Part shown: piece by piece, positions 35,155 to 62,412 of the stretch
Position numbering within the stretch: the stretch's first letter is position 1
Layout: each line of letters opens with the position of its first letter
Assembly: GCF_041200175.1 (NCBI RefSeq)
Contig: NZ_CP165727.1
Span: forward strand, 2,170,001 to 2,234,000
Origin: Streptomyces sp. R33
GTDB taxonomy: Bacteria > Actinomycetota > Actinomycetes > Streptomycetales > Streptomycetaceae
DNA length: 64,000 bases
Reading direction: 5' to 3'
Notes under the pieces: generated by a model
Seen by the model: the letters and a program-made list of their open reading frames with translations, nothing else
Told to the model about the DNA's origin: nothing
Databases searched by the model: none
Program-made: the position numbers and the translations under genes

Positions 35155-35183
35155 ACGCCCCCACCCTTTGGAGCACCACCCGC

Positions 35184-39256: not shown

Positions 39257-39341
39257 ACGATGCACGCCCTGCCCACGGCGTCGCGGGCAGCGCCCCCGGA
39301 CCGGTTGCCTGGTGGAACCGCACCCCTCCAGGAGGCCCCCG

Positions 39342-39779: not shown

Positions 39780-39781
39780 TC

Positions 39782-44493: not shown

Positions 44494-44581
44494 CACCACC
44501 CGTGGCGCAGTCGGGCCGACCCCTGACACGTCACTAGGCTGGCCAGCGGACCACCCGCGGCCGTACGACGATCGGGAGACC

Positions 44582-45948: not shown

Positions 45949-46428
45949 CTACGCAGGCGTCAACTCACTGAGGGCCCCTTGTAGGGCTTCGCTCTTGAGA
46001 AGGGTCGCCGCAGCCAGTTTCCGCAGATCCTCGCCAGTCAAATAGCGGTAGCTCTGCGGTGGATGGAACGAGCCGGAGGCCCTGAGAGCCGCCAGAGGAA
46101 CCGGCTCCTCGAAGGCGACCGGCTCCTCCAAGGAGAGGCCGCTGGCCCGGGTCGCGCCGCTCATGTAGTCGTCGTACTCCCGACGGCTGATGCCAGTGCT
46201 CGTGCGACTGGCGGTCCACACCTCACGAGGGCTGGCCACCTGCACCGAGGCGATCCTCGCCATGCCGACGATGGCCATCGTCGGCGCGGTCGCGTAGAGG
46301 AGTACGGGCGTCCCAGGAGGAGCGGCGACGCGTTGGCGGCGTACCTCCACCGTCTTGGTGCCGGCCAGGATCGCCGTCGCGAACCTCGGGTGGACGGACA
46401 ACAGCATCGCGCGCTCCGGATCGCTCAC
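45949..46428 (-). CDS. ASCH-domain protein
   Basis: The 159-residue protein begins MLLSVHPRFATAILAGTKTV followed by EVRRQR, the ASCH/PUA-like RNA-binding opening. It continues VLLYATAPTMAIVGMARI, and later EEPVAFEEPVPLAAL with the FxxPxPL pattern near the end. Small ASCH proteins bind RNA or act as amidohydrolases on modified nucleosides. GTG 46428 overlaps the stop of the large upstream gene (GTGA), so the two proteins are made together. A pair of an ASCH protein with a GNAT/PIN protein recalls toxin-antitoxin or tRNA-targeting systems, but this is inference. Confidence 0.8.
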   Translation of the reverse strand: MSDPERAMLLSVHPRFATAILAGTKTVEVRRQRVAAPPGTPVLLYATAPTMAIVGMARIASVQVASPREVWTASRTSTGISRREYDDYMSGATRASGLSLEEPVAFEEPVPLAALRASGSFHPPQSYRYLTGEDLRKLAAATLLKSEALQGALSELTPA

Positions 46429-48479
46429 GTCTTTCGGTGCCCCTCTTCGTACACGGCCTGGAACAGCGCGTTGTCGATCTTCGACAGCGACATCAGCGAC
46501 AACCGTAGCCCCAGCCCGTTCGCCAGCGCGGTCAATCGCGAATGCGTCACCTGTACGGGAAACAGCTCCGTGTCCGAGAACCTCAGCGCCATGACCCGGC
46601 CCGTAGCATCGGCTGCCGCACGCACTTCGGCACGACCATATACGCCCAGGTGTTCGAATCGCGAGAAGAGGGCGTCAGGGTCGCCGATGACCACCTCGTC
46701 GAGGCGCGAGCAGCCGATCACCATCTTGCCCTGCTGCCCTGCGGACCCCTCACTGACGTACCAAAGGATCCGAGCGGGGACGCTCTCGCCCCGATGGCCG
46801 GCCGACCGGTAGTACACGTGCTCGCGACTGATTCCGAGTACGTCGTCGCGCGGTACGAGCATTGCCGGAACGTCGAAGAGCTCCGTGGACCAGCGCGGCT
46901 TGACGGGTGCGATGAAGGTCGACAAGGCAGAATCGACCAGCTTCGCCGGCCACCACACCCTCTCGGCGATGCTCGCGATCTCCGCTGGCGCACGGGTGTC
47001 CAGGACCGGCGTCACAGCGCCGGTCCGCCCCGCGATCTGCCCGGCGGCCCCGGAGACCGCCTCCGTCGGCCCGCACACGTCTACCAGGAGCGCGGTGAAG
47101 CCCTTCTCGTCCTCGACGAAGCCGTCGGGGCCTGCTGCGACCACAGCCGCCCTTGAGGGGCCGGGGTCGATGATGCGCACGGCCTGGGCGCCCCGGTCCC
47201 GCCCGAGCCTCTTCAGCATGAAGAGCAACTGGCGGGCCAGCGTCTCTTCCAGAGCGTGCGATGCGGTCCTCAGGAGAGGAACGTTCAGCGTGCGGCCGTC
47301 CAGCGCCCAGGCGTACAGCGCGACAGGGCGCCCATCGCCGTCCCGGATGAGTTCCCTGCGCCACAAGACACCGTCACGGGCAAGGCTGGTCAGACGCTCC
47401 GACAAGCCGACTCCACCGTCACCACCGGCCTCGTCGAAGAAGGCGACGAGCCCCTCTTCACTTCCGGGCTCGACCTCGGCGGCGGAGAAGGCCGTTCCCA
47501 TGAGATCGGCAGGGCGATACATCTGGGCTTGGCGGAGTTCGTCCACATGGAGCGTCACGGCCTCGGGAGAGACCACCCTGACGCGCGCCACCTCCCAGGC
47601 GATGTCTGCCAGCGCCGCCAGGTCGGAATCACGGGTCACCAGTACCTGCAGGCCAGCACAAGACGTCTCGGCCACGTAGCGCAGCCGCGCACGCAGGCCG
47701 ACATCGATCACAACGCCGGGCATCTCCTTGCCCACCGCTGCGGTCAACTCCTGCTGGCGGCTGACCACCGCGGCGGTGTCGGGCGCCAGGGAGCGGAGCC
47801 TGGACAGGCCGGCACGTTGGTGGTTCCGCTCCTCCCGGTCCTCCACCGCTTGAACGTGCAGGAGGAGCTGCGGCGTATAGGCGAGCTCGACCAGGTCTGC
47901 GAGCCACCCGGCCTCAAGGGCCCTCGCTTCCTCGACCGCACTCTCGGCACCCGTGCCGTGAAGCCCGGAGAAGACCGTGTGGTCGACCGTCACGACCAGC
48001 AGGGCGTCGCTCTGCGCTCCCGTGAACAGGTCGTCGTGACCGTGGTCGAGCCACCAGGTGTCGAGGGTCTCCTTGTCACTACCCCGCCCGAGGCCCTCGC
48101 CCTTCGGCACGAAGCCCAGGCCGCTCCAGGTGGCGCTGAGCCCGTAGTCACGGCGACACCTGGCCCTGATCCCGAGCCTGTGACTTTGACTGCGCCGCAG
48201 TTCTGCGATCAGGAGCCTCGCGACCCCCTTGCCCCGGTGCTCCTCCGCCACGCACAGGTGCACGAGGCGAACGTGCTGGCTACGCTTGGGCAGTCCGAAG
48301 AGCGCGTATCCGACCAGCTCACCGTGGTCCAACGCAACGAGCAAGCCACCGTCGTCCGCGTACTTCCGGTACGCGGGTGGCGTGAGCAGACCGAGCCGCT
48401 TCGTGTAGCGGTTGCCCAGGGCGATGGCCGCACCGAGCATCTCCGACTGCTCTCCGGTCACCGGCAGCACTTCGATCAC
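46425..48479 (-). CDS. GNAT acetyltransferase - PIN-like multidomain protein
   Basis: This 684-residue protein has an N-terminal GNAT domain (about residues 30-140: VHLCVAEEHRGKGVARLL gives the acetyl-CoA loop). A PIN-like nuclease region follows (about 150-305: LLVVTVDHTVFSG and QVLVTRDSDLAALADI carry aspartates). A second GNAT-like segment (about 345-460) precedes a C-terminal PUA/EVE-like domain (about 500-680: ARILWYVSEGS, then IGCSRLDEVVIGD). GTG 48479 follows GGAGGGGG. It overlaps the ASCH gene. The combination of acetyltransferase, RNase-like and RNA-binding folds next to a DISARM locus suggests a toxin or defence factor acting on tRNA or ribosomes. The domain boundaries are rough. Confidence 0.7.
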   Translation of the reverse strand: MIEVLPVTGEQSEMLGAAIALGNRYTKRLGLLTPPAYRKYADDGGLLVALDHGELVGYALFGLPKRSQHVRLVHLCVAEEHRGKGVARLLIAELRRSQSHRLGIRARCRRDYGLSATWSGLGFVPKGEGLGRGSDKETLDTWWLDHGHDDLFTGAQSDALLVVTVDHTVFSGLHGTGAESAVEEARALEAGWLADLVELAYTPQLLLHVQAVEDREERNHQRAGLSRLRSLAPDTAAVVSRQQELTAAVGKEMPGVVIDVGLRARLRYVAETSCAGLQVLVTRDSDLAALADIAWEVARVRVVSPEAVTLHVDELRQAQMYRPADLMGTAFSAAEVEPGSEEGLVAFFDEAGGDGGVGLSERLTSLARDGVLWRRELIRDGDGRPVALYAWALDGRTLNVPLLRTASHALEETLARQLLFMLKRLGRDRGAQAVRIIDPGPSRAAVVAAGPDGFVEDEKGFTALLVDVCGPTEAVSGAAGQIAGRTGAVTPVLDTRAPAEIASIAERVWWPAKLVDSALSTFIAPVKPRWSTELFDVPAMLVPRDDVLGISREHVYYRSAGHRGESVPARILWYVSEGSAGQQGKMVIGCSRLDEVVIGDPDALFSRFEHLGVYGRAEVRAAADATGRVMALRFSDTELFPVQVTHSRLTALANGLGLRLSLMSLSKIDNALFQAVYEEGHRKT

Positions 48480-48717
48480 CGTGTTCCCCCTCCGCTTCCG
48501 TGAGGATCGGGTCGATCACTCCCAGCGCATGGTGTCGAACCATGGGTGAGCGGGCCACCGTTTGACCAATTTCAGCCGTGTTGGCTTGAATTGACACTCC
48601 ACGGCGGCGGTGCGGCGGCGGCCACCCCAAGCAGACACGGGAGCGCGACCCTACGGGGTTACCGAATGAACGCTGAGCAGTTGTCCGGAGGTGGAAACAA
48701 AAGGCAGTCGTAGGGGC

Positions 48718-49239
48718 GTGCCAGCGCCGCGGGACGCCAACGTCCGGAAGGTGATGACCGCCCAACGCAACCGGGACACTGCGCCGGAGCTGGCGCTGCG
48801 CCGCGCCCTTCACGCGTTGGGCTTCCGCTACCGCGTGGACCTGCCGATCCCAGGAATGCCGCGTCGGCGCGCTGACGTCACCTTCACACGCTGGCGGACG
48901 GCGGCGTTCGTCTAAGGCTGTTTCTGGCACGCCTGCCCGACACATCAGCACGCTCCGAAGCACAACTCCGAGTGGTGGGGCAGGAAGTTCGACACCAACG
49001 TTCGCCGGGACGAGGAGACCGACGCGCACCTCGCGCTCCTGGGCTGGCTACCACTCCGCGTCTGGGAGCACGAAAGCGTGGACGGTGCTGTTCGGCGCGT
49101 GACGGCGGCCCTCGCCACCCGGGGCCATCCCCTCGCCCTGCGGCTGGACGCCCGGGACGTCGACACGTCGCTCCAGGCCGGAACAGCACCCCCACGGTCG
49201 GCGGCGTTAACCCGCTCAGGACTGTGGAACTCCCGCTGA
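48718..49239 (+). pseudogene. vsr: Vsr-type very short patch repair endonuclease, nonsense mutant
   Basis: The frame from GTG 48718 reads RDANVRKVMTAQRNRDTAPE, then ALRRALHALGFRYRV and RRRADVTFTRWRTAAFV, where a TAA (48913-48915) interrupts it. The frame goes on with GCFWHACPTHQHAPKHNSEW, the Vsr active-site block, and ends RVWEHESVDGAVRRV near 49239. Vsr nicks DNA next to T-G mismatches at cytosine-methylation sites; no cytosine methyltransferase is next to it. The stop replaces the residue just before GCFWH, so the N-terminal product lacks the zinc and catalytic histidines. Unless the stop is misread or a base-call error, the gene is inactive. Confidence 0.8.
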
Positions 49240-49531
49240 GACGCTCGGCTCGTCTGTTGCTGGCGGGTGCGCGTACATGCCCTCACTGAACGGGGTGAAC
49301 CAAGCACCGAACGGCATGGGCGCCACCCCAAGGCGGAGCCGACCCCGCTCTCATCGATGCCGTCCATCGAATCGCCGTACAGCCGCTCGAGGCCCACGGG
49401 GGCCAGTAGGCTCTCTCTGTGTCCTACCAGCGGCGTCTGCCGGGCTGGGATGCAACTGGTGACATAGGACTCGGGCAAGACTCGGGCTCGCGCCACGATG
49501 CACGGAACGACAGGCGATCCGGGAGCGGAAG

Positions 49532-52500
49532 TTGACACGGGTGGGTATCGAAGAGGTCGACGAGGCGGACGAGGCGGTGCCAACCGTCGGCCAACTAGTT
49601 ACGGTACGTAATCGGAACTGGGTAGCCACTGCCGTGGAGCGCTCCTCGATCACGGTCGAAGAGCCGGGCAGTCCACTGTTTGCCGAGGCGCAGCACCTGG
49701 TCTCCCTGGTTTCGGTGGACGGTGACTCCGGTGACGAAGAGTTGCGCGTCCTGTGGGAGCTGGAGCCCGGTGCCACCGCCCGTGAGCAGCACGCCTTGCC
49801 GTCTCCGGTGAGCGGGTTCGATGACCCGGCGAAGTTGGATGCCTTCCTTGACGCTGTGCGCTGGGGCTCGGTGGCAACAGCGGACAAGACGTTGCTGCAG
49901 GCGCCGTTCCGCTCCGGCGTGAAGCCGGAGGACTACCAGCTCGACCCTGTGGTGCGGGCGCTGCAGATGCCGCGTACGAACCTGCTGATCGCGGATGACG
50001 TTGGTCTCGGTAAGACCATCGAGGCAGGTCTGGTAATGCAGGAACTGATGCTGCGGCACCGGGCGCGGACCATGCTGATCGTGTGCCCGGCTTCGCTCAC
50101 TTTGCAGTGGCGTGATGAAATGCGCGACAAGTTCGGCCTGGGGTTCAAGATCGTGGATGCGGAGCTCCTGAAGGAGCTCCGCAGGTCTCGCGGGCTGTAC
50201 GCGAATCCGTGGACGCACTACCCGCGATTGATCGTCTCGATCGACTGGCTCAAGCGGGAGCGGCCCATGGCGCTGCTGCGCTCGATCCTGCCGCCGGCCC
50301 CGCAGTATCCGCGCGCCTTCGACCTCCTCGTCGTCGATGAGGTACACACATGCGCGCCTTCGGGTTCCGGGAAGTACGCGGTCGACTCACAGCGCACCGA
50401 CGCGATCAAGACCTTGGCCCCGCACAGCGAGCACCGGCTGTTCCTGTCGGCGACGCCGCACAACGGCTACTTGGAATCTTTCACCGCCCTGTTGGCTCTG
50501 TTGGACGGCCACCGCTTCGCCCGCACCCTGGAGCCCTCGGAGGAGGCCAAAGCGCAGGTGATGGTGCGCCGACTGAAGCGGGATCTGCCGCCGAACTGGG
50601 ACGGTAGCCCGCGCTTCCCAGAACGTGATCTCGACCATCCTCTAGAAGTCGTCTACGATGCCGCGACCCGCGACGCCTACGCAAAACTCGACCTGTACGC
50701 GCAGTCCCGCCGCGAGACGATCTCCGGACAGCTGACCTTGCAGGGCACTGCGCCAAGCCGGGCTGCGGACTTCGTCGTCACGCTACTCAAGCGCCGCTTC
50801 CTGTCCAGCCCGAAGGCCTTTGCCAATACGGTGGACACCCATCTGAAGACGATGCTCGCCCGGGGGAGGCACAACGAAGCCGAGCTGGAGTACGACCGCG
50901 GCACGTACACGGTGGCGGAGAAGGTCCTCGCAAAGATGATCGGGCAGCTGGACGAAACGGCTGAGGACGATGCCGCCTTCGCTGAGACAGCCCAGGAGGC
51001 CCTTGCCACAGTTCGTCGGTTCGCCCCGCCGCTTACCCCCGCCGAACAGAAGCTGTTGGAGGACCTGCGCGACTGGGGGGACCACAACTCGGAGAAGTCC
51101 GACGGCAAGTTCACCGCCTTCCTCGGCTGGCTGCGCGCCACCGTGCAGCGAAACGGAACCGATGGGGTGAGCGGCAGCTGGGACGGCGAGCGGGTCATCG
51201 TGTTCACCGAATACCGCGATACCCAGCGCTGGCTGCACGAACGACTCATCAGCGCCGGTGTGCCGAACGAGGCGATCGCCCAGCTCTACGGCGGCCAGGA
51301 CCGCGATGAACGCGAGCGCGTCAAGAACGTCTTCCAGGACGACCCGGGCGTCGACCCGGTGCGGATCCTGCTCGCCACCGACTCCGCGAGCGAGGGCATC
51401 AACCTGCAGAACCACTGCCACCGGGTCCTGCACTGGGAAATTCCGTGGAACCCCAACCGCCTGGAGCAGCGCAACGGCCGAGTGGACCGGCACGGACAGA
51501 CCGCGGCGAAGGTCGAGATCGTCCATTTCGTGCCCGAGGGCTGGGACCAGCAGCGCGAAGAGGACACCGGATTCACCGAGGGCACCTTGGAGGACGCGAT
51601 GGCGTTCCTCGGCGTCGCGGTCCGCAAGGTCGAGCAGATCCGCACCGACCTCGGTAGTGCCGGAGAAGTGATCGCCAGCCAGGTCGAGCAGAAAATGCTC
51701 GGCAAGCGCTCCAGCTGGCAGACCACCGACAGGGAGATCCAGCGTCTGGCCGGCAAAGCCGTACTGAAGATCGAACGGAATCTGGCGCACGACCTCCAGC
51801 AGGCCCAGGAACAGCTCACCCGGACCCGCACCGAGCTGAATCTGAACCCGGAGACGATCGAGCGGGTCGTACGGACCGCGCTCCGCCTGGCCCACAAGAA
51901 GGATCTGATCGAGACTTCGTCGCCCAGGGGAGTCAATGCACGGTGCTTCAAGCTCCCGGAACTGAAGGAAGGCTGGGCGCAGGCACGCAACGACGGCCTG
52001 CGGCACCCGGTCAGTGGCAAGGAGCGCCCTGTCACCTTCGACCAGAACTACGCCGGACGTACTGACGTCGTGCTGCTGCACCTGAACCACCGCCTGGTCG
52101 ATCTGTGCCTGCGTCTGCTACGCGCTGAACTGTGGTCCCAGGACGAGCACGGCGCGTATCTGTCCCGTGTCACCGCCCGGATCGTCCCCGGCGACCTGCT
52201 GCGCAACCCTGCAGTGATCGCTCACGGCCGCGTCGTGCTCACCGGCAACCGAGGAGTGCGTCTGCATGAGCAGATCGCCCTGGCCGGAGGATCCATCGAA
52301 CACGGCAAACTGGTGGTGGAGAAGAACCCGGAAGCCCTGGAACAGTGGCTCACTGCCGCGTCGCAGGAGGCACCGCCGCCCGAGTTCCTCGACCGGCTCA
52401 CCGCGCTGTGGGGCGTACTGGAGACCCCTCTCAGCAAGGCGCTGCAGACCGAGTCCAACAAGATCGCACGCAAACAGCGCAAAGTCCTGGACAAGCGCTG

Positions 52501-52813
52501 CGAGGAAGACGTCAAAGCAATGCAGTCGGTACTGACCGAGCTGGAGCGCAGCATCCGGGACTCCCTGAACTCCAACCCGCTCTGGCGCCAGGACTCCCTG
52601 CTGGCCCCCGACCCGGAACGCGACCAGCTCAGGAAGGACCGCACGGAACTGGAGGCACGCCTCGCCGCCGTCCCTGAACAGCTCGTGTCCGAGGCGGCGG
52701 CCCTTCGCCACCGGTACGCGGACCCGGTCGCCCGCCGCTTCCCCGTGGCGGTCACCTTCCTCGTCCCCGCCTCCCTGACCGTAGCCGCTCCTTCCCACCA
52801 GGCAGGCCACTGA
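49532..52813 (+). CDS. drmD: DISARM class 1 SNF2-like helicase DrmD
   Basis: The 1093-residue SF2 helicase has Walker A in DVGLGKTIEAG (Lys161), the DEVH box at about 269-272, motif III SATPHNG at about 306, and helicase motifs V-VI in TDSASEGINLQ and the arginine-rich WNPNRLEQRNGRVDRHGQ. These are the SNF2/RapA type. The C-terminal third (about 700-1090) is the DrmD-specific extension. TTG 49532 was chosen with GGGAG six bases upstream; GTG 49541 is possible. The stop overlaps the methylase start by one base. In class 1 DISARM this protein is the distinguishing component and is required for restriction of phage DNA together with DrmABC. Confidence 0.93.
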   Translation: MTRVGIEEVDEADEAVPTVGQLVTVRNRNWVATAVERSSITVEEPGSPLFAEAQHLVSLVSVDGDSGDEELRVLWELEPGATAREQHALPSPVSGFDDPAKLDAFLDAVRWGSVATADKTLLQAPFRSGVKPEDYQLDPVVRALQMPRTNLLIADDVGLGKTIEAGLVMQELMLRHRARTMLIVCPASLTLQWRDEMRDKFGLGFKIVDAELLKELRRSRGLYANPWTHYPRLIVSIDWLKRERPMALLRSILPPAPQYPRAFDLLVVDEVHTCAPSGSGKYAVDSQRTDAIKTLAPHSEHRLFLSATPHNGYLESFTALLALLDGHRFARTLEPSEEAKAQVMVRRLKRDLPPNWDGSPRFPERDLDHPLEVVYDAATRDAYAKLDLYAQSRRETISGQLTLQGTAPSRAADFVVTLLKRRFLSSPKAFANTVDTHLKTMLARGRHNEAELEYDRGTYTVAEKVLAKMIGQLDETAEDDAAFAETAQEALATVRRFAPPLTPAEQKLLEDLRDWGDHNSEKSDGKFTAFLGWLRATVQRNGTDGVSGSWDGERVIVFTEYRDTQRWLHERLISAGVPNEAIAQLYGGQDRDERERVKNVFQDDPGVDPVRILLATDSASEGINLQNHCHRVLHWEIPWNPNRLEQRNGRVDRHGQTAAKVEIVHFVPEGWDQQREEDTGFTEGTLEDAMAFLGVAVRKVEQIRTDLGSAGEVIASQVEQKMLGKRSSWQTTDREIQRLAGKAVLKIERNLAHDLQQAQEQLTRTRTELNLNPETIERVVRTALRLAHKKDLIETSSPRGVNARCFKLPELKEGWAQARNDGLRHPVSGKERPVTFDQNYAGRTDVVLLHLNHRLVDLCLRLLRAELWSQDEHGAYLSRVTARIVPGDLLRNPAVIAHGRVVLTGNRGVRLHEQIALAGGSIEHGKLVVEKNPEALEQWLTAASQEAPPPEFLDRLTALWGVLETPLSKALQTESNKIARKQRKVLDKRCEEDVKAMQSVLTELERSIRDSLNSNPLWRQDSLLAPDPERDQLRKDRTELEARLAAVPEQLVSEAAALRHRYADPVARRFPVAVTFLVPASLTVAAPSHQAGH

Positions 52814-55800
52814 TGCCAACGCGCACCCGCTTCCCGAAAACGGAGCAGCAGACCCCGATCGAGCAGCACGCCGAGTGGCTCAACCTGCTTCGTCCGGACG
52901 GGCCGTTCCTCACCGCGAAGATCCTCGCGGACGCATTCCCGCAAGGCCTTGACGTTGTCGACACTCCCCTGCGCGGCCGCCTCCGGCAGGCCTGGGCCGA
53001 GCTTCAGGCCGAACCGGCGACGCTGTGCAGCGCCTGGCAGCACCTGATCCTGGAAGAACTGCTCGGCTACCAGGGCCAGGCACTGCGCCAAGGCTCGATG
53101 CTGCCCCGCGAACTCACCGACCACCCCGGCACAGCCCCCGACGCATTGCTCATGGGCCCTCCCGACCCGACCAGCGGCATGCCCGGCGCGGCCGAACGCG
53201 CCCTCATCTACCGCCGCCCCTGGGGCGAACCCCTCACCCGCGCCACGAAGGGCTTGCCGTCGGCGGCCGAGCAGGCCGCCGAGCTGTGCCGGCGTCGTGC
53301 CGTCCCCCTCGCGCTGCTCACCAACGGAACCTTCTGGGTCCTCGTCCACGCCCGGCCCAAAGCACCGACCTCGGTGGCGGTCTTCGATGCCGACACCTGG
53401 TTCGAGGAACCGCTGCTGCTGCGCGCCTTCACCTCGCTGCTCGGTGTCCGCTGCGCCGCGATCGCGCCCAAGGACAGCGAGGGCAAAGACACCGACTCCC
53501 TCGCCGCCCTGTTCACCCGCACAGCCGACGACACGACCGCCGTCACCAAGACCCTCGGCAAGCAGGTCCGCGCGGCCGTCGAACTCCTTGTCGCGGAGCT
53601 CTCCCGCCTCGACCGTGAGGCCGACGGCGTCGTGCTGGAAGGCGTCGCGCCGCGGACCGTCTACCGCGCTGCGCTGACCGTGATGATGCGGATCGTGTTC
53701 CTCCTCTACGCGGAGGAACAGGGCCTGCTCCCGGCCGACGACGAGCTGTACGCCGACTCGTACTCGGTCACGAAGCTCTACGACCGCCTCGATCAGGACG
53801 ACGCTGACATCGCCGACCGCTGGAAGGCCGCCTGGCCCACCCTGCTCGCCACCTTCCAGGCCATCCACGGCGGGGCCCGGCACCCGGACATGTGGATCCC
53901 CGCATACGGCGGATCGCTGTTCGACCCGAAGCGGTTTGCCTGGCTGGAACGCCTTAAGGTCACCGATCGTGTCGTCTTCGCCATGCTTGACGCCCTAATC
54001 AAACTCAAGCGCACCACGCCTGCAGGCAAGGTCACTTCGACGGAACGCCTGTCCTACAAGGGCCTCGACGTCGAGCAGATCGGCCATGTCTACGAGGGCT
54101 TGCTCGAACACTCCGCCATTCGGCTCGACGAGACACGCCTCGGGCTCAAGGGCAAGGCTGGTGTCGACGTCAAGCTGGCTGACCTTGAAGAGTGGAGCGC
54201 GGCGGGTCACCTCCAGGCCAAGACCGTCAAGCTCGCCGGCCTGACGGCGAAGCAGTTCACCGCCGCAATCGCGACCGAGCCGACCGGCGCACAGATCGGT
54301 ACCCTCGACGCAGCCTGCGACAACGATCCCGAGCTCGCCGACCGAGTGCGGCCATTCTTCGGCCTGCTGCGCTCCGACCTGCGTCACGAGCCGGTTGTTC
54401 ACCCTGCCGGGACGGTCATCGTCACCCAGGTCGGCGACCGGCGCGACTCCGGCACGCATTACACACCGCGCGCGCTCGCCGAAGAGATCATCCTGCATAC
54501 CCTCGACCCGCTGTGCTTCTCACCCGGCTCCCCGGACGGTGTTCCGCGACCCGCCGATGGGAGCCAGCCGCCCGAGTGGCAAGTTCGTCCGGCATCGGAA
54601 CTCCTGGCGCTCAAGGTCCTCGACCCCGCAATGGGCTCCGGCGCGTTCCTGGTCTCGGCATGCCGGTACTTGTCGGAGCGGGTCGTGGAGGCATGGGACC
54701 GCGATGGGCTGCCGGACGCGGTCGGTGCGCGTCTCGACGAGCATCGCGAGGACCGCGACGCGAAACTCCTTGAAGCCTGTCGCATGGTTGCCGACCGCTG
54801 CCTTTACGGTGTCGACACAGATGAGATGGCGGTGGAACTCGCCAAGCTCTCTCTTTGGTTGGTCACTCTGGCGAAGGGCCGTCCGTTCAACTTTGTTGAC
54901 CACGCGCTACGCTGCGGCGACTCCCTCATCGGCTGCTTGACGGCGGACCAGATCGAAGCCTTCCACCTCAACCCGGGTGAAGGCCATCGCCTCAACGCTC
55001 GTCTCAGCGGGGAAATCGACAAGATCACTGGCCCGTTGCTCTCGCAGGCAGCGGAGCTGCGCCGTGACATCGAGCAACACGAGGTCGTCGACATCCGAGA
55101 CGCCCGGGCGAAGGCTAAGAAGCTCGTCGAGGCCGAAGCGCTGACGGAACAACTTCGCCTTGCTGCCGACGCTCTGGTTGCGGCGAAACTATCCACCGCA
55201 ACGACCAAGTCCAATGATGCGTACGATAACCGCCTCGCTTCCATCGCCGACCTCGTTGAGCAGGCGCTGCTGGGAGACAAGGCCGCAGCAGCCGAGGCCC
55301 GCACGATCGTCGATGGCTGGCTCCTCGGGTCCAGCGGCGGGTCGCGCACGGTCCCGCTGCGCCCGCTGCATTGGCCGCTCGAGTTCCCTGAGATCTTTGC
55401 CGATTTCACGCGCGGCGATCACCGCTTCGACGCTGTAGTGGGAAACCCACCATTCTCGGGCGCAATGGATATCCGCAGCCGAATTGGTATTGATTGCTTG
55501 AGCTATATTGGGCAGGTTGTCGCAAATGGCTCGACAGCTGGAGGCAGGGCAGATCTGTGCACCTATTTCCTACTAAGAAATTCCCAGCTTGCCCCAAAGC
55601 GGCGTATGGCAATCATCGCAAGCAACACGATTGCCCAGGGAGATTCCCGGGAGGTTGGCATCGCGAGGGCGATGGCGCATGACTGGGAGATCTTTCGCGC
55701 AATCAAATCTCAGCCGTGGATCGGTGCGGCAAATGTTTTCGTATCGCTGATTTGGTTGAGAAGTGACGGACTCGACGATCAGGCAATTCTCGATGGTGTC

Positions 55801-56928
55801 AGCGTGCCAAGGATCGACTCGAGCCTGACTCGACCATCCCGAGTAACTGGCGACCCGCATGAGCTCAAGATGTTTTCTGGGCGATCCTCGCAGGGGTGCA
55901 TCACGGTTGGCACGGGCTTCGTGATTGAAACGAGCAAAGCCCAGGCGCTCATCGCCGCCGACCAACGCAATCGCGAAGTAGTCCGCCCATACCTGATCGG
56001 CGATGACGTTAATAACGATCCGCAATCACTGGCGAGTCGCTGGGCTATCGATTTCTTTGAAATGTCCCTTTCGGAGGCGCAAGAATATCCGGATCCGCTC
56101 GCCATTGTCGAGCGCGAAGTCAAGCCTTGGCGGCAAGAAGTCAAGCCCAATGGTGAATATGTACGCCGCAAGCCGCTGCCGCAGCGCTGGTGGCAGTACG
56201 GGGATAAGCGAAAGGCGATGCGTGACGCCATTTCGAGTCTCGATAAGGTAGTCGTTATTGGCCGGGTAAGCAAATACGGCCTCCCGAACGTTGTCCCAAC
56301 TGGCCAGATTTACTCTGATCAGTTGGTCGTCTTTTATGAATCTGATCACGCCGCCATGCTCGCACTACTCACCAGCGCCTGGCACTTCAACTGGTGGACG
56401 GTCAAGGGTGAGTCGACGATGAAATCAGACCCCCGCTACACCCCCTCCGACGGCTTCGACACGTTCCCGCAGCCGGAACTCACCCCGCGCACCCGGGCTG
56501 CCGGCGAGGATCTAGATACCTACCGTCGCCATGTCCAGCTATCGCGGACACCACAACTCGGCATGACCGACCTCTACAACGAGGTCCACAACCCAGCAAA
56601 CCTCGACGCCGATATCCAGCGCCTGCGCGATATCCATGTCGAGATCGACGAAGCCGTCACTGAGTCCTACCTCGCCCACCCTCTCGCGGCGCACTTCGGC
56701 TGGACGCCGCTCGTGCTGAACCACGGCTTCCACGAGACAGTCCATGGCCTGCGCTGGACTGTCGCCCCGGATGTCCAGATCGAGATGAACGACCGTCTCC
56801 TCGAACTCAACCACGCCCTGTACGAAGACGAGGTCCGCCGTGGCCTCCACAACAAAAAGGGCCCCGCCAAGCCCAGGAAGACTGTTGTCCCCGCAGCGAC
56901 CCCGGATCCCGGTGATGGGCTCTGGTAG
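52813..56928 (+). CDS. drmMI: DISARM class 1 adenine-specific methylase DrmMI
   Basis: This 1371-residue protein is a large Eco57I/BREX-type N6-adenine methyltransferase. The AdoMet motif is DPAMGSGAFLV (Asp604), and the catalytic NPPF motif is VGNPPFSGAMD (Asn878). The N-terminal third (about 1-300) is the helical region usual in type IIG-like methylases without an evident nuclease motif. Residues after about 880 form the target recognition domain, where the DNA is clearly lower in GC (about 55430-56400) than the rest. It overlaps drmD. It marks host DNA so that DISARM does not attack it. Confidence 0.93.
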   Translation: MPTRTRFPKTEQQTPIEQHAEWLNLLRPDGPFLTAKILADAFPQGLDVVDTPLRGRLRQAWAELQAEPATLCSAWQHLILEELLGYQGQALRQGSMLPRELTDHPGTAPDALLMGPPDPTSGMPGAAERALIYRRPWGEPLTRATKGLPSAAEQAAELCRRRAVPLALLTNGTFWVLVHARPKAPTSVAVFDADTWFEEPLLLRAFTSLLGVRCAAIAPKDSEGKDTDSLAALFTRTADDTTAVTKTLGKQVRAAVELLVAELSRLDREADGVVLEGVAPRTVYRAALTVMMRIVFLLYAEEQGLLPADDELYADSYSVTKLYDRLDQDDADIADRWKAAWPTLLATFQAIHGGARHPDMWIPAYGGSLFDPKRFAWLERLKVTDRVVFAMLDALIKLKRTTPAGKVTSTERLSYKGLDVEQIGHVYEGLLEHSAIRLDETRLGLKGKAGVDVKLADLEEWSAAGHLQAKTVKLAGLTAKQFTAAIATEPTGAQIGTLDAACDNDPELADRVRPFFGLLRSDLRHEPVVHPAGTVIVTQVGDRRDSGTHYTPRALAEEIILHTLDPLCFSPGSPDGVPRPADGSQPPEWQVRPASELLALKVLDPAMGSGAFLVSACRYLSERVVEAWDRDGLPDAVGARLDEHREDRDAKLLEACRMVADRCLYGVDTDEMAVELAKLSLWLVTLAKGRPFNFVDHALRCGDSLIGCLTADQIEAFHLNPGEGHRLNARLSGEIDKITGPLLSQAAELRRDIEQHEVVDIRDARAKAKKLVEAEALTEQLRLAADALVAAKLSTATTKSNDAYDNRLASIADLVEQALLGDKAAAAEARTIVDGWLLGSSGGSRTVPLRPLHWPLEFPEIFADFTRGDHRFDAVVGNPPFSGAMDIRSRIGIDCLSYIGQVVANGSTAGGRADLCTYFLLRNSQLAPKRRMAIIASNTIAQGDSREVGIARAMAHDWEIFRAIKSQPWIGAANVFVSLIWLRSDGLDDQAILDGVSVPRIDSSLTRPSRVTGDPHELKMFSGRSSQGCITVGTGFVIETSKAQALIAADQRNREVVRPYLIGDDVNNDPQSLASRWAIDFFEMSLSEAQEYPDPLAIVEREVKPWRQEVKPNGEYVRRKPLPQRWWQYGDKRKAMRDAISSLDKVVVIGRVSKYGLPNVVPTGQIYSDQLVVFYESDHAAMLALLTSAWHFNWWTVKGESTMKSDPRYTPSDGFDTFPQPELTPRTRAAGEDLDTYRRHVQLSRTPQLGMTDLYNEVHNPANLDADIQRLRDIHVEIDEAVTESYLAHPLAAHFGWTPLVLNHGFHETVHGLRWTVAPDVQIEMNDRLLELNHALYEDEVRRGLHNKKGPAKPRKTVVPAATPDPGDGLW

Positions 56929-57016
56929 GGGCCTTCCAGCACCGGAGCCCACGTGCGGCACAAGCTTTGGCTGCGTTGCGCCGCGCTGTCAGTGGCTCGT
57001 CCTATCGTTGTGACCC

Positions 57017-60000
57017 ATGAGCGATAAGTTGCCGCCCGCGACGTCGAACAGCCCGGTGCTGGCTGTCCCGTCCCCAGGCTCGATACGTGACGAGCTGGCC
57101 AAGCTCGTGGTGCTGGACCTGCTCGGACCGGTGGGCGGCGACCAGGAGGAGGTTGCTGACTCCCCGACCGACTGGTACGTGCTCGGGCGGCTCGCGCCGA
57201 ACGGCACAACGATCGTGCCGGAGGAGATGGACGCCTCGCTCGGCGACAGTGAGCTGCCGGGCACGGATGAAGGGTCGCCGGACACGGACGCGCCGAACGT
57301 GCCGAGTCTGGCCCCGTCATCGGTCGGATTCACCGCGCGGGTACGCGGTGATGCCGACCGGCTGGAGGTGACCGGGCGGTGGGCACGTTACGTCCGCTCA
57401 CACTCGACGGATCCGAGCATCGAAAAGCTGATCTGGCGGCGCACGCCCCACACCGGCTGCGTTCCGGTCAAGCTGGTCGAGGGCCTGGTCGAGGCTCTGG
57501 TGCTCGACTCCGAGGACGAGAAGGTAGTGCTGCGCGGCCGGGTGCGGCGTTTCCATGACGACTGGCTGGTCACGCTCTTCCTTGTCAATACCACCGAGAC
57601 CGACTCCAACTCCGCGCTGCACTGGGTGTTCCAGGCCGAGCTGTCAGCGGAGGGCGTGGACGGCGCGGCGGTGTTCCTGCCCCGGCACGAGCCTGGATCC
57701 GGAGGCGATGCCCTCGACCAGGGCGAGCAGCGGCGGTTGGCCATGGCCTACCGGTTCAGCCCGGAGTTCGCGGTGGGGCACGCGACAGGGGTGAGCGCGA
57801 CGGCCAGTGGCTCCGACCCGATGAGAGCGGTCTCTGTCTACACCAAGGCCGCGCCGGAGTACGACATCGCGCAAACCGACGCGCCGTCGTTCGACAGCGA
57901 TCCGGACCTCCCGGAGCTGGTGGACCTGTTGGTCGACATGGAGGAACTCGGCGCGTGCGAGCCGCAGCGCCTGCGAGCGGGACTGATGCCGCTTGTGGCC
58001 GGTTATCGGGCGTGGATCGAGCGGGCCGAGGCGCGGATCGGACAGGACGGCCAGTATCTCGACGAGTACGCAGATCAGGCCGCGGAGGCGCTGGCCGAGG
58101 CGAAGCGGGCAGCCGACCGGATCGAAGCGGGCATCGAGCTGGTGCTCGGTGACCCGGATGCCCTGGCCGCCTTCCGCTTCGCGAACAGCGCGATGCACCT
58201 GCAGCGTATCCACACACGGGTCGCCTCCGCCCGACGCCGTGACGGATCCCGCGACCCTGACTCGGTGTTCCGCGACGAGGACAAGCCGGCCAACCGCTCC
58301 TGGCGTCCCTTCCAGCTCGCGTTCCTGTTGCTGAACCTTCCCGCGCTGACCGATCCGGCGCATCCGGAACGTGCCACGGGAGCCGAAGCAGTGGCGGACC
58401 TCCTGTGGTTCCCCACCGGTGGCGGCAAGACCGAGGCGTACCTCGGCCTGACCGCGTACACCCTCGCCATCCGCCGGCTGCGACCGGACCTCGGCGGTCT
58501 CGACGCGGGCCACGGGGTCGCCGTCCTGATGCGCTACACCCTGCGGCTGCTGACGATCCAGCAGTTCCAGCGTGCCACGGCGCTGATCTGCGCGTGCGAG
58601 GTCCTGCGCCGCGGCGACGAGGCTCGATGGGGTGCAGAACCGTTCCGGATCGGCCTGTGGGTCGGGGGGAAGGTGTCCCCGAACACGACCGACAAGGCCA
58701 TGGACTGGGTCAAGGACGTCCGCAGGGCGAGCGGGAAACCCCATCAGAACTCTGGCAGCCCCTACCAGCTCACCAGTTGCCCATGGTGCGGAACGAAGAT
58801 CGAGAAGGGCCGGGACGTCCAGGTCGACAAGACCCTTCGCCGCACCTTCCTGCGCTGCCCCGAGCTGTTCGGCTGCCCCTTCGGCGGTGGCGACCCGAAC
58901 GGTGAAGGTCTGCCGGTCGTCGTCGTTGACGAGGAAATCTACCGGCTGTTGCCGAGCCTTGTGATCGCGACCGTCGACAAGTTCGCGCAGCTCACCTGGA
59001 ACGGGCGCACCCAGGCCCTGTTCGGCCGCGCCTCCCAGCACTGCTCCCGGCACGGCTACGTCACCGCCCAGATCGCCGAGGAGGACTGGGAAGCCACCAG
59101 CCATCTCGCGGAAGGACGCTATCGCGCCGCTACGCTCACCGCGGCCATGCCGGTGCGTCCCCCGGACCTGATCGTGCAGGACGAGCTGCACCTGATCTCC
59201 GGTCCGCTCGGTTCGCTGACCGGCTTGTACGAAGCTGCCGTGGACCGCCTTGCCACCTGGGAGTACGCGCCGGGCAAGACGGCGCGGCCCAAGGTGATCG
59301 CCTCGACGGCCACTGTGAGGCGCGCCGAACGGCAGATTCATGCCCTGTTCGACCGGCGCACCGGGGTCTTCCCACCACAGGGCCTGGAGATCGGGGACAG
59401 CTTCTTCGCCAGACAGCGGCCCAAGGACTCGCACCCCGGCCGCCGCTACATCGGGATCTGCGCGCAGGGAGTGCGCACGAAGTCCACGATGATCCGGGTG
59501 TACGTCGCGGTGCTCGCCGCCGCGCAGACCGTGCACAAGAAGTACGGGCACAACCCGGTGACGGATCCCTACATGACCCTCGTCGGCTACTTCAACAGCC
59601 TGCGCGATCTGGGCGGCATGCGTCTGTCGGTCGAGGACGATGTCTCCACCCGACTGGAGCGGATCAACGAACGCGGCTTGTCGAGGCGCTACGACCTGCG
59701 GCTTGAGGAACTCACCTCGCGCCTGACCTCGGAGAAGATCCCGGACATCCTGCAGCAACTGGAGTACACCTTCCCCCGGGCGAACAAACTGACACCGATC
59801 GACGTGCTCCTGGCAACCAATATGATCGCCGTCGGAGTCGACGTCTCCCGCCTCGGCGTCATGATTGTCGCCAACCAGCCGAAATCCACCGCCGAGTACA
59901 TCCAGGCCACCAGCCGCGTCGGCCGCGCCGCCCCCGGCCTCGTCTTCACCGTGTTCAACTGGGCCCGCCCGCGCGACCTGTCCCACTACGAGACCTTCGA

Positions 60001-60544
60001 ACACTTCCACGCCACCGTGTACCGGCATGTCGAAGCGCTCTCGGTCACCCCGTTCGCCGAACGCGCGATAGACCGTGGCCTCACCGGGGTACTGGTGGCG
60101 CTCGCCCGCAACCTCGAGGCCGGCGACAACGGCAACCTCGGTGCGCAGACCTTCGATACGCACAGCAGCAAGGCCGACCACATCGTCCGCTACCTGGAGC
60201 GCCGCGCCGGCGAGGTCGCCACCGACCGGTCCGTCGGAAGCCGGGTACGCGAGGAACTCGACAGCATCCTGGACTTGTGGGCACGCGAACAGCGCCGCCC
60301 CGCCGCCCGACTCGCGTTCAACGCCAAGGGCAAGGCCGACGACATCGTTGGCTTGCTCCACAGCCCGGACTCAGGCCCGTGGAAGCGCACATCCTGTCCC
60401 ACCTCGCTGCGTGAAGTCGAGCCAGGTATCCGACTGGTGCTGCGGACCGCTCCGGGTAACGCCGACGACCACGAGCAGCACCCGTTCCTCCCGCGCCCGA
60501 ACCCGGACGCCAACGGCGCCGGACACGAAGGGGACCTCTCATGA
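57017..60544 (+). CDS. drmA: DISARM helicase DrmA
   Basis: DrmA is the core helicase-like protein of DISARM and binds DNA ends together with DrmB. The 1175-residue product has Walker A in FPTGGGKTEAY (residues 466-472), the DELH box (Asp722) in IVQDELHLISGPLGSL, motif III-like IASTATVRRA and motifs V-VI in ATNMIAVGVDVSRLG and YIQATSRVGRAAPG. ATG 57017 lies 88 bases after drmMI, so a separate internal promoter is possible; the two genes are on the same strand. Its stop overlaps the drmB start. Confidence 0.93.
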   Translation: MSDKLPPATSNSPVLAVPSPGSIRDELAKLVVLDLLGPVGGDQEEVADSPTDWYVLGRLAPNGTTIVPEEMDASLGDSELPGTDEGSPDTDAPNVPSLAPSSVGFTARVRGDADRLEVTGRWARYVRSHSTDPSIEKLIWRRTPHTGCVPVKLVEGLVEALVLDSEDEKVVLRGRVRRFHDDWLVTLFLVNTTETDSNSALHWVFQAELSAEGVDGAAVFLPRHEPGSGGDALDQGEQRRLAMAYRFSPEFAVGHATGVSATASGSDPMRAVSVYTKAAPEYDIAQTDAPSFDSDPDLPELVDLLVDMEELGACEPQRLRAGLMPLVAGYRAWIERAEARIGQDGQYLDEYADQAAEALAEAKRAADRIEAGIELVLGDPDALAAFRFANSAMHLQRIHTRVASARRRDGSRDPDSVFRDEDKPANRSWRPFQLAFLLLNLPALTDPAHPERATGAEAVADLLWFPTGGGKTEAYLGLTAYTLAIRRLRPDLGGLDAGHGVAVLMRYTLRLLTIQQFQRATALICACEVLRRGDEARWGAEPFRIGLWVGGKVSPNTTDKAMDWVKDVRRASGKPHQNSGSPYQLTSCPWCGTKIEKGRDVQVDKTLRRTFLRCPELFGCPFGGGDPNGEGLPVVVVDEEIYRLLPSLVIATVDKFAQLTWNGRTQALFGRASQHCSRHGYVTAQIAEEDWEATSHLAEGRYRAATLTAAMPVRPPDLIVQDELHLISGPLGSLTGLYEAAVDRLATWEYAPGKTARPKVIASTATVRRAERQIHALFDRRTGVFPPQGLEIGDSFFARQRPKDSHPGRRYIGICAQGVRTKSTMIRVYVAVLAAAQTVHKKYGHNPVTDPYMTLVGYFNSLRDLGGMRLSVEDDVSTRLERINERGLSRRYDLRLEELTSRLTSEKIPDILQQLEYTFPRANKLTPIDVLLATNMIAVGVDVSRLGVMIVANQPKSTAEYIQATSRVGRAAPGLVFTVFNWARPRDLSHYETFEHFHATVYRHVEALSVTPFAERAIDRGLTGVLVALARNLEAGDNGNLGAQTFDTHSSKADHIVRYLERRAGEVATDRSVGSRVREELDSILDLWAREQRRPAARLAFNAKGKADDIVGLLHSPDSGPWKRTSCPTSLREVEPGIRLVLRTAPGNADDHEQHPFLPRPNPDANGAGHEGDLS

Positions 60545-62412
60545 CCATCACCGCCGACGGGACGCGCTCGGCAAGCAACCTGCGGGTCGGGGAGCTGAGG
60601 CCCAGCCAACTGCTTCACACCTACGGTGTCGGCGCAGTCGCGGACCTCCCGAATCTCTCTGTGATGGTCCTCGGGCTCGACGAGTGGGAGCTGGAGAAGG
60701 CCGCTATCGTACCGGAGGAACGGCTGCTGGCGGCGGTGCGCAGCAAGGTCGGCGCCCAGGTGCAGAACCTGCGGATGCCTCCGTACACGCCGGAGGATCC
60801 AAACGACTTCACCGGCGCCTGGTCCCGGATCGGTGTGCCGGTCGCGGTGTTCCCGGGCTGGCTGCGCTGCACCGACACTCGGTGCAACCGGCTCGCCCCG
60901 GCCGATTCCGGGCTCTTTCACCTGCTGCCCAACAGCGTGGCACCCGACCAGACCCGCTTCGTCCACTCCTGCCGCGAGACCGGCCGTAAACGGCCGACCG
61001 CGGTGCCGGCCAGGTTCGTCTCTGCCTGCCCGGCCGGCCATGTGGACGACTTCCCGTGGATGTACTTCGTCCACCGTGGCGCCCCCTACGGGGCGGACCA
61101 CACACTGAAGCTCGTCGAGCGCGGTACCACCGGCGAGGCCGCGAACATCTTCGTCGAATGCTCCTGCGAGGTGAAGGCCCGATCCATGGCCGAGGCGATC
61201 GGTACCCGTAGCGAACAGGTACTCCCTGCCTGCCGGGGTCGGCACCCGCACCTGGGAACCTTCGAATCTTGCACCGAACAGACCCGGACCATGGCACTGG
61301 GCGCGACGAACGGCTGGTTCGCCATGCAGTTGCGGGTTTTCTCCATCCCGCACGCCGAGAATCCGGTGGACAGCGCCGTGGCCGAACATTGGGCCGGGCT
61401 CCGGGTGGTGGCACAGCTGCCCCGCGAGACCGCGCGCCTGGTCCTTCCCACCCAGGTTATGTGGCCACAACTCGAACGCTTCGGCGCGGACGAGGTGTTG
61501 GACGCGATCTCGCGACACCAGGGAGAGAACCAGGCCAGCACCGCCGAAGACACCGACGCATTGGACATCTCCGGACCGGAATGGCTTGCCTTCATCGGCA
61601 GCCCGCAGAACCACCCTGACTTCAGCGTCAGCAACGAGCCCGTCCCAGCCGTACACCGCGACTGGCTCGGCCAGGTGCGCCTGGTCAAGCGCTTGCGCGA
61701 GGTATCCGCGCTATACGGATTCAGTCGGATCGACGCGCCGGAATGGGGCTCCGCGACCAGCGGAGGCGAGGCCCTGGAGGAGAACCGCGCGCCCCTCTCC
61801 AGCTCCGCGCCGATCTGGCTGCCCTGCGCGGAAACCCGCGGCGAGGGGATCTTCCTTCGCTTCGACGAGAAGCGGATCAGCGCCTGGGAACAGGACCCGA
61901 ATGTCATCCGCCGGACCAGAACGCTGATGAAGGCACACGAGAAGTGGTGCACCCAGCGCCGCACCGCCGCAGAGTGGCCAGGCATCCGCTATGTGCTGCT
62001 GCACACCTTCTCCCACGTCCTGATCCGAGAGTTCGCTCTTGAGTGCGGGTACGGCGCCTCCGGAATAGGCGAGCGGATCTACGCGCGCTCCGGTGCAGAT
62101 CCAATGGCCGGCATCCTGCTCTACACCGCAGCCCCCGACAGCGAGGGCACCCTCGGCGGGCTGGTCAGCCTCGGTGGACAGCACAGACTTGGTGCGTTGA
62201 TCGATCAAGCGCTCGAAGCTGCGCGGCTGTGCGGCTCGGATCCGCTGTGCGCCGACCACGACCCGGTCGCCCACGGTCGCCTGCACGGTGCTGCCTGTCA
62301 CGCCTGTCTGTTCGCGGCGGAAACGTCCTGCGAACGGGGCAACCACTTCCTCGATCGCGAACTGCTCGTAGAAACATTCAGCGGCCGACCAGGCGGGTTC
62401 TTCACAGCATGA
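60541..62412 (+). CDS. drmB: DISARM DUF1998 protein DrmB
   Basis: This 623-residue DUF1998-family protein partners DrmA. The diagnostic C-terminal segment is YVLLHTFSHVLIREFALECG, then YGASGIGERIYAR, followed by a cysteine cluster (HDPVAHGRLHGAACHACLFA and ETSCERGNHFLDR) that likely binds zinc. The N-terminal part includes further cysteines (RCTDTRCNRLAP; CSCEVKARS; ACRGRHPHLG). ATG 60541 overlaps the drmA stop (ATGA). In DISARM the DrmAB complex recognises foreign DNA and is needed for protection. Confidence 0.93.
   Translation: MTITADGTRSASNLRVGELRPSQLLHTYGVGAVADLPNLSVMVLGLDEWELEKAAIVPEERLLAAVRSKVGAQVQNLRMPPYTPEDPNDFTGAWSRIGVPVAVFPGWLRCTDTRCNRLAPADSGLFHLLPNSVAPDQTRFVHSCRETGRKRPTAVPARFVSACPAGHVDDFPWMYFVHRGAPYGADHTLKLVERGTTGEAANIFVECSCEVKARSMAEAIGTRSEQVLPACRGRHPHLGTFESCTEQTRTMALGATNGWFAMQLRVFSIPHAENPVDSAVAEHWAGLRVVAQLPRETARLVLPTQVMWPQLERFGADEVLDAISRHQGENQASTAEDTDALDISGPEWLAFIGSPQNHPDFSVSNEPVPAVHRDWLGQVRLVKRLREVSALYGFSRIDAPEWGSATSGGEALEENRAPLSSSAPIWLPCAETRGEGIFLRFDEKRISAWEQDPNVIRRTRTLMKAHEKWCTQRRTAAEWPGIRYVLLHTFSHVLIREFALECGYGASGIGERIYARSGADPMAGILLYTAAPDSEGTLGGLVSLGGQHRLGALIDQALEAARLCGSDPLCADHDPVAHGRLHGAACHACLFAAETSCERGNHFLDRELLVETFSGRPGGFFTA

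What the first reader, a model, noticed from the sequence alone, without database searches (positions are those of the whole stretch)
55430..56400. Low-GC island inside the DrmMI target-recognition domain
From just before the NPPF motif to about 56400 the coding DNA uses many A/T third bases (AAT, ATA, TTT, GAA), unlike the flanking GC-rich sequence of the same gene. It covers the region that should recognise the methylation target. This suggests domain replacement by recombination with a foreign allele, i.e. a change of DISARM specificity.
Basis: seen in the sequence. Interest (0 to 1): 0.5.

Follow-up and report, generated by a model that had tools for sequence, protein, structure and literature searches.

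The report
Swappable AT-rich target domain in DISARM
The part of this bacterial anti-phage enzyme that reads the DNA target has been swapped between related bacteria, but its AT-rich composition is a lasting property of this swappable part in every relative examined, not a sign of recent import from a foreign species.

Summary
In detail: in drmMI (52813-56928, +) GC3 falls from 0.82 to 0.61 over 55393-56367. Streptomyces sp. Isolate_45 (L006) has the same locus at about 93-95% identity, except about 54750-56550, whose core is 44-63% identical: a clean allele mosaic. But low GC is not the footprint of a foreign import. It includes conserved codons, follows where close relatives differ rather than where distant ones do, and avoids TTA as the rest of the actinobacterial gene does. 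So the recognition domain behaves like an accessory gene inside a core gene: exchanged repeatedly (16 of 16 disjoint close pairs) and, I infer, drifting toward AT within its host group. Three relatives carry an inverted spare TRD beside a recombinase gene; the window has no spare TRD. A changed methylation motif is inferred, not shown.

The parts
52813..56928 (+). drmMI, 1371 aa, MmeI-like adenine methyltransferase of a DISARM operon
   Evidence: PADLOC PDLC02643 DrmMI 1433.6 bits; Pfam MmeI_Mtase, Eco57I, N6_Mtase and MmeI_TRD above cut-off; fold closest to MmeI 5hr4, Z 23.8, 534 residues aligned, rmsd 6.0
55393..56367 (+). GC3-poor segment (aa 861-1185), GC3 0.606 against 0.824
   Evidence: change-point scan and 500 shuffles; fourfold sites
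55444..55455 (+). NPPF catalytic motif (aa 878-881), near the usual left edge of the exchanged stretch
   Evidence: sequence; invariant N-P-P at positions 342-344 of alignment A1, which begins at aa 537; edges
55738..56400 (+). target-recognition domain, about aa 976-1196
   Evidence: read from the secondary structure of the model, mean pLDDT 84; Pfam MmeI_TRD aa 1033-1223
55501..56250 (+). core that is not shared with L006 (44-63% DNA identity per 150 bases; 48 gap columns in the last block)
   Evidence: global alignment with L006
54751..55350 (+). left shoulder, 85-89% identity to L006 between 92-98% upstream and the unrelated core; may be a second or longer exchange tract
56251..56550 (+). 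right shoulder, 67% then 84% identity to L006, before return to about 95%
49532..52813 (+). drmD, SNF2-like helicase
   Evidence: PADLOC DrmD 1306 bits; no comparable GC3 segment
57017..60544 (+). drmA, helicase
   Evidence: PADLOC DrmA 1017 bits; no comparable GC3 segment
60541..62412 (+). drmB, DUF1998 protein (the domain name is from PMC9142583, passages)
   Evidence: PADLOC DrmB 246 bits
62409..63254 (+). drmC, PLD-family protein (family from PMC9142583, passages)
   Evidence: PADLOC DrmC 353 bits; start codon overlaps the drmB stop

Best explanation
The segment is the exchangeable specificity module of a DISARM adenine methyltransferase: the end of the methyltransferase fold from about the NPPF motif plus the MmeI-like target-recognition domain (TRD). 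Shown: related strains keep the operon and the rest of drmMI and differ in this module, with left edges mostly near NPPF (10 of 16 between aa 861 and 899) and right edges spread over aa 1194-1322. Inferred: exchange is by ordinary homologous recombination in the conserved flanks, and it changes the methylated motif that marks self DNA. Shown: the module is AT-shifted at third positions in every relative examined, conserved codons included. Inferred: because many divergent alleles circulate and cannot recombine with one another inside the module, each has a small effective population and little gene conversion, so weak selection for GC-ending codons (or GC-biased conversion) fails there and the composition relaxes toward the mutational equilibrium of its own host group. 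The low GC is thus a standing mark of a swappable domain, not a mark of one recent foreign import.
For: Mosaic against L006 at a collinear chromosomal place (95.6% over 32962-46812 on the same contig). 16 of 16 disjoint close pairs with backbone DNA identity 0.84-0.96 have an inner stretch at 0.51-0.71, median aa 868-1252; with codon positions 1+2 only, aa 882-1243. Island in 53 of 53 other homologues, mean GC3 difference -0.257, and 71 of 71 in all. Columns conserved in 95% or more of genes: GC3 0.644 in the island (22 columns) against 0.906 in the N-terminal backbone (136 columns). GC3 along the gene follows the divergence of close pairs (rho -0.84, positions 1+2) but not that of distant pairs (rho -0.09). 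At the right shoulder, pairs that differ further out are also GC3-poor further out (r -0.525, 1 of 5000 permutations; control aa 100-700 r +0.04). Pooled fourfold sites in the island are near strand parity (A 0.193, T 0.206, C 0.299, G 0.302; backbone C 0.493, G 0.385). TTA 9 of 300 TTR codons, 113.5 expected. Low-GC hosts shift further down. Streptomyces BREX-2 PglX repeats the pattern (23 of 23, rho -0.89).
Against: No donor allele was found: the best island match is 51% identity in 392 genus genomes and 60% (L001) among the aligned genes. Within the 54 actinobacterial genes island GC3 does not follow backbone GC3 (slope -0.21, p 0.33), which a shared, slightly AT-rich pool would also give. 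The drop is nearly absent in a few: L081 -0.030, Nocardia -0.017 and Planktothrix -0.026. In the window itself the 22 most conserved island codons are less low (0.737 against 0.832). The left-shoulder test is weak (r -0.19, 276 of 5000), five regions were tried without correction, and an all-positions version was confounded (its control was significant too). GC3 also follows close-pair divergence a little within aa 1-700 (rho -0.41). TTA is depleted in the backbone as well (10 of 352, 63 expected) and per codon is commoner in the island (9 of 17070 against 10 of 53799), so it could have been purged after import. Strand parity is a pooled figure: per-locus C-G skew is 0.13 (sd 0.18) in the backbone and 0.00 (sd 0.20) in the island, and 0.15 in the window's island. 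Very fast divergence in place, instead of exchange, is not formally excluded for each pair. No population data were available, so the drift or conversion step is inference.
Confidence: 0.68

Rival explanations
1. One reading: this one allele was imported recently from a foreign, lower-GC lineage, and its low GC is the footprint of that import.
For: Real mosaic boundary against L006; GC3 step at the same place.
Against: Island in 71 of 71 relatives; the window's dip (-0.211) is smaller than the mean of the others (-0.257); the L006 allele is equally poor; TTA avoidance kept (0 TTA and 3 TTG in the window's island, too few to test alone; 9 of 300 in the pool); no close phage, plasmid or viral-contig match.
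Confidence: 0.07
2. TRD cassettes of each host group circulate through somewhat AT-rich vehicles (plasmids, phages, accessory genome) and never ameliorate fully, because they are exchanged again before they can.
For: Island GC3 is independent of backbone GC3 within Actinobacteria; accessory genes are generally lower in GC than core genes (PMC5303225, abstract); the middle 450 bases of Streptomyces HsdS matches are GC3-poorer than neighbouring frames in 18 of 20 loci.
Against: One phage hit only, at 33% identity; all 393 plasmid records that match are under 60% identity; none in viral contigs, by a search that reaches close relatives only; TTA avoidance.
Confidence: 0.2
3. Low GC is selected in the domain itself, for instance slower translation for folding or an mRNA property.
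For: It is found in all homologues examined and extends to conserved codons.
Against: The right-hand edge varies with how far the pair differs, rather than sitting at one domain border; it is seen in another defence methyltransferase, BREX-2 PglX, again where alleles differ.
Confidence: 0.07

Closest known systems
[quoted passage not shown]
   Same: Specificity domains replaced by recombination in conserved flanks; that paper says Type III TRDs even move between non-orthologous genes at sequences encoding conserved methyltransferase motifs.
   Different: Here the gene is a single-chain DISARM methyltransferase; no movement between two TRD positions was seen in the window. 'GC content' and 'base composition' have 0 occurrences in that paper's main text.
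BREX methyltransferase PglX/BrxX (PMC11341690 and PMC11842806, passages)
   Same: Methyltransferase plus TRD in one chain; [quoted passage not shown] the Streptomyces BREX-2 version shows the same low-GC3 island; related fold (Z 12.5).
   Different: Different defence operon, and a longer C-terminal part.
MmeI, Type IIL restriction-modification enzyme (5hr4)
   Same: Best fold match of aa 537-1371 (Z 23.8, 534 aligned, rmsd 6.0); Pfam MmeI_TRD.
   Different: DrmMI lies in a DISARM operon; its N-terminal part (aa 1-536) was not modelled and no cleavage activity was assessed.
Phase-variable, recombinase-linked specificity loci such as the pneumococcal tvr locus (PMC6265443, search listing and abstract start only)
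   Same: Spare specificity sequences beside a recombinase gene, as in relatives L187, L188 and L189 (the tvr layout is partly recalled).
   Different: The window has no spare TRD; in the three relatives inversion was not observed directly.

Membership tests
Class 1 DISARM | drmMI together with drmD, drmA, drmB and drmC in one cluster | tested here: met
   PADLOC matches for all five genes, consecutive on the + strand, 49532-63254. That drmMI and drmD define class 1 is recalled.
Class 1 DISARM | Protects against phage and methylates a host motif | not testable with these tools
   needs a phage assay and a methylome
MmeI-like adenine methyltransferase with TRD | Adenine methyltransferase domain with NPPF motif followed by an MmeI-type TRD | tested here: met
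   Pfam Eco57I 56.2, MmeI_Mtase 50.4, MmeI_TRD 36.0, N6_Mtase 29.7 bits, all above cut-off; fold match
TRD allele replacement | Near-identical flanks around an unrelated core in an orthologous gene | tested here: met
   16 of 16 disjoint pairs
TRD allele replacement | Donor of the present allele identified | tested here: not met
   no close island match in what was searched
TRD allele replacement | Changed methylation motif | not testable with these tools
   no methylome available
Recent import from a foreign low-GC lineage | Composition island absent from homologues | tested here: not met
   present in 53 of 53 and 71 of 71
Recent import from a foreign low-GC lineage | Codon usage of a low-GC donor, including TTA | tested here: not met
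   pooled: 9 TTA of 300 TTR in actinobacterial islands, against 106 of 157 in cyanobacterial islands; the window's own island has 0 TTA and 3 TTG
Invertible TRD switch | Inverted spare TRD plus recombinase beside the gene | tested here: not met
   one TRD only in the window, no relative of the three recombinases; nearest match to a recombinase family is an integrase-type one at window 31385-31951, about 18 kb from drmD. Layout present in L187, L188, L189

The most novel reading that the evidence does not exclude
Specificity domains of self-marking methyltransferases are accessory genes nested inside core genes: everywhere they are exchanged so often that they live in their own population-genetic regime, which leaves a permanent AT-ward shift with edges at the recombination junctions. 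GC3 would then be a general locator of swappable specificity domains in DISARM, BREX and restriction systems. Some DISARM loci have further turned exchange into an in-house, recombinase-linked TRD switch.
Probability: 0.4. Interest if true: 0.72.

Novelty: new member of a known kind. Interest (0 to 1): 0.5.

Why it matters
It corrects a common inference: an AT-rich patch in a specificity domain should not be read as a recent foreign import. It shows that DISARM methyltransferases exchange their target-reading part as restriction systems do, and that a simple GC3 profile finds that part. If the cause is reduced GC-biased conversion or codon selection in domains that cannot recombine, these domains give a within-gene natural experiment on why some bacterial genomes keep a high GC content. 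The recombinase-linked spare TRDs in three relatives suggest that some DISARM systems may change their self-mark within one strain.

Tried and rejected
Donor search: whole gene or island against genome contigs (6 loci), 199 and 392 genus genomes and 394 class genomes, plasmids (393 records, all under 60% identity), phages (1 record, 33%) and viral contigs (none): no donor.

Site-wise relaxation as the cause of low GC3: rejected because conserved columns are low too and because divergence of distant homologues does not predict GC3.

Shoulder test on all codon positions: dropped as evidence because lower GC3 by itself raises third-position differences, and the control region was also significant; its 1200-1350 value was not a number because of empty bins. 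Repeated on positions 1+2, where the left shoulder is weak and the right is clear.

TTA codons as a bldA-type developmental control of drmMI (recalled idea): none counted in aa 1-840, 880-1200 or 1230-1371 of the window's gene; dropped.

HsdS control: crude, because frames were taken stop to stop and compared with neighbouring frames; 24 of 30 loci gave a frame, 20 had a usable neighbour, 18 were lower. Supportive only. In the PglX control the low region was chosen from the same 23 genes in which it was then counted.

Rows dropped: one search used 54 genes including the window; one duplicate (L002 = L008) and one truncated gene (L091) were left out, as were the island-only loci (L037-L066) and short or weak matches (the script kept frames of 900 aa or more at E 1e-100). 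The 17 plasmid relatives were my choice from the 30 listed of 393, and not all lie in an annotated DISARM operon. The 43 stretches include three picked because one search had shown a spare TRD in them, so 3 of 43 is not a frequency; one search examined 53 loci, most with 1.5 kb of flank.

A search for relatives of the L189 recombinase in 396 phylum genomes found none at E 1e-110; the cut-off was strict, so it says little. The two-genus follow-up (5 genomes; 49 genomes) gave no second strain with the same spare TRD, so no second orientation could be looked for.

The sequence search of solved structures found no relative (best E 0.059); only the fold search did.

Paper searches for DrmMI or DISARM specificity exchange, inversion, or low GC in TRDs: (the last listed nothing). 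No title or abstract start in the lists announces it, and the passages I read (PMC11341690, PMC9142583, PMC3983042, PMC10273834, PMC7365801, PMC9716671, PMC11842806) do not report it; most listed papers were not opened and the library holds open-licence papers only.

The collinearity claim was checked. An earlier count gave 37-62% for TRD identity of close pairs; one search shows 37-75%.
Full report
What is there. The gene at 52813-56928 (+) encodes a 1371-aa DrmMI in a DISARM operon with all five genes: drmD 49532-52813, drmMI, drmA 57017-60544, drmB 60541-62412, drmC 62409-63254 (PADLOC). Pfam gives an MmeI-type methyltransferase and an MmeI-type target-recognition domain (TRD), all above cut-off. 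An AlphaFold model of aa 537-1371 (mean pLDDT 84) is closest to MmeI (5hr4, Z 23.8, 534 residues aligned, rmsd 6.0). Read from the model's secondary structure, the methyltransferase fold runs to about aa 966, the TRD from about 976 to 1196, and helices follow.

The observation. A change-point scan places a GC3-poor segment at 55393-56367 (0.606 against 0.824; gain 30.9, largest of 500 codon shuffles 11.0), beginning just before the NPPF motif; the other four operon genes have no comparable segment (gains 2.5-6.2). Fourfold sites agree. In a baseline of 180 ORFs of 310 codons or more, from the window and twenty 20-kb stretches of the same genome, one other had a lower 310-codon minimum, at a stop-to-stop ORF start.

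The mosaic. Streptomyces sp. Isolate_45 (L006) has the operon in a collinear place: on the same 125,179-base contig window 32962-46812 matches in one alignment at 95.6%, and parts of 25000-33000 at 84-93%. Over the operon Blast gives 95.4% for 46813-55462 and 93.3% for 56353-62923. In between, identity per 150 bases falls to 85-89% (54751-55350), 73% (55351-55500) and 44-63% (55501-56250), then rises through 67% and 84% to 95% from 56551. So one of the two strains has exchanged this module. The graded left shoulder may mean more than one event.

Exchange is the rule in this family. Among 54 actinobacterial DrmMI genes (the window included), the 40 closest pairs share 85-95% of backbone residues but only 37-75% of aa 951-1150. 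Taking disjoint pairs with at least 80% backbone DNA identity, 16 of 16 have an inner divergent stretch (0.51-0.71 against 0.83-0.94 outside), median aa 868-1252; with codon positions 1+2 only, aa 882-1243. Ten of 16 left edges lie between aa 861 and 899, near the NPPF motif (878-881); right edges spread over aa 1194-1322. Very fast divergence in place is not formally excluded for each pair, but a core near 50% DNA identity between flanks of 93-95% speaks for replacement.

Low GC is not the footprint of this exchange. It is in 53 of 53 (mean difference -0.257; the window's -0.211 is shallower than average; the smallest is L081, -0.030). It is in 17 of 17 chosen plasmid-borne relatives, eight of them with backbone GC3 of 0.26-0.55, though the drop is very small in Nocardia (-0.017) and Planktothrix (-0.026). 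Over all 71 genes the island is lower every time. Streptomyces BREX-2 PglX, a different defence methyltransferase, shows GC3 of 0.59-0.68 over its allele-variable stretch against about 0.88 in most other bins, lower in 23 of 23, with rho -0.89 against divergence of close pairs (region chosen from the same genes). HsdS matches point the same way (18 of 20; crude).

What the low GC follows. It is regional: columns conserved in at least 95% of genes have GC3 0.644 in the island (22 columns) and 0.906 in the N-terminal backbone (136 columns); in the window alone the figures are 0.737 and 0.832. Along the gene it follows the divergence of close pairs (rho -0.84, positions 1+2), that is, where alleles differ between near relatives, and not the divergence of distant pairs (rho -0.09), that is, where the protein is variable; within aa 1-700 alone the close-pair relation is weaker (rho -0.41). 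At the right shoulder, pairs that differ further out are GC3-poor further out (r -0.525, 1 of 5000 permutations); inside the island r is -0.27 (135 of 5000); at the left shoulder it is weak (r -0.19, 276 of 5000); in the control region aa 100-700 it is absent (r +0.04) (five regions tried, no correction).

Home-made or foreign. Leucine TTA is 9 of 300 TTA+TTG codons in actinobacterial islands where 113.5 are expected from other purine-ending codons; in cyanobacterial islands it is 106 of 157, and in six other non-actinobacterial genes 12 of 37. TTA is also avoided in the actinobacterial backbone (10 of 352, 63 expected), so the island carries its host group's own signature; the window's island alone (0 TTA, 3 TTG) is too small to test. 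That TTA is rare and developmentally regulated in Streptomyces is recalled. Pooled fourfold sites in the island are close to strand parity, as expected if codon preference has lapsed, but the backbone's own C-G skew is modest and single loci scatter (0.13, sd 0.18, against 0.00, sd 0.20). Across all 71 genes island GC3 rises with backbone GC3 (slope 0.64), but within Actinobacteria it does not (slope -0.21, p 0.33). I read this as alleles of each host group drifting toward a common mutational composition because exchange keeps many mutually non-recombining alleles. This last step is inference, and an AT-rich within-group pool remains the main rival.

A related find outside the window. Three relatives carry a second, partial TRD in inverted orientation directly downstream of drmMI (L187, L188, L189). 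In L188 the two arms share exact inverted blocks of 192 and 404 bp separated by divergent DNA, in L187 98 and 165 bp, in L189 only 26 and 31 bp. Each has a recombinase gene next to the spare TRD: serine recombinases in L188 and L189 (83% identical to each other, although the hosts are of different families) and a phage-integrase-type protein in L187. The L189 copy has an internal stop and may be decayed. These look like TRD switches for DISARM; inversion itself was not observed. The window has no spare TRD and no relative of these recombinases; the nearest recombinase-family match is integrase-type, at window 31385-31951 (-), about 18 kb upstream of drmD.

What is known. TRD exchange is described for Type I and III systems (PMC3983042, passages) and TRD variability for BrxX (PMC11842806, passages). 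The DISARM structure paper (PMC9142583, passages) notes that the methylation modules recognise specific sequences; 'recombination' does not occur in its main text. My searches listed no title or abstract start that announces TRD exchange or inversion in DrmMI, or a standing AT shift in TRDs.

Verdict. Observation confirmed; domain replacement supported by independent evidence; foreign low-GC origin not supported; change of specificity likely but untested.

Noticed in passing
L188 (G723) 5901-9898: Spare inverted TRD frame (7201-8556) tail to tail with drmMI, exact inverted blocks of 192 and 404 bp, serine recombinase gene just outside (start near 7202): candidate invertible DISARM specificity switch.
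   Followed up: partly
L187 (G110) 7859-10892 and L189 (G695) 6301-8896: Same layout: spare inverted TRD plus a phage-integrase-type gene (L187) or a serine recombinase 83% identical to that of L188 (L189).
   Followed up: partly
L195 (G122): Two complete DrmMI genes facing each other about 3.7 kb apart, with 65-73% identical inverted stretches.
   Followed up: no
Streptomyces BREX-2 pglX loci L231-L252 and L254: The same low-GC3, allele-variable stretch in another defence operon.
   Followed up: partly
window 54751-55350: A stretch of 85-89% identity to L006 between 92-98% upstream and the exchanged core; perhaps an older or separate recombination tract.
   Followed up: no
window 46801-48900: This stretch upstream of drmD, which includes a GNAT-domain gene, is 97-100% identical to L006, mostly higher than the operon itself, so the operon may have its own history.
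   Followed up: no
window 31385-31951 (-): Phage-integrase family match (47 bits, open frame 430 aa) about 18 kb upstream of the DISARM operon; whether an integrated element is present was not looked at.
   Followed up: no
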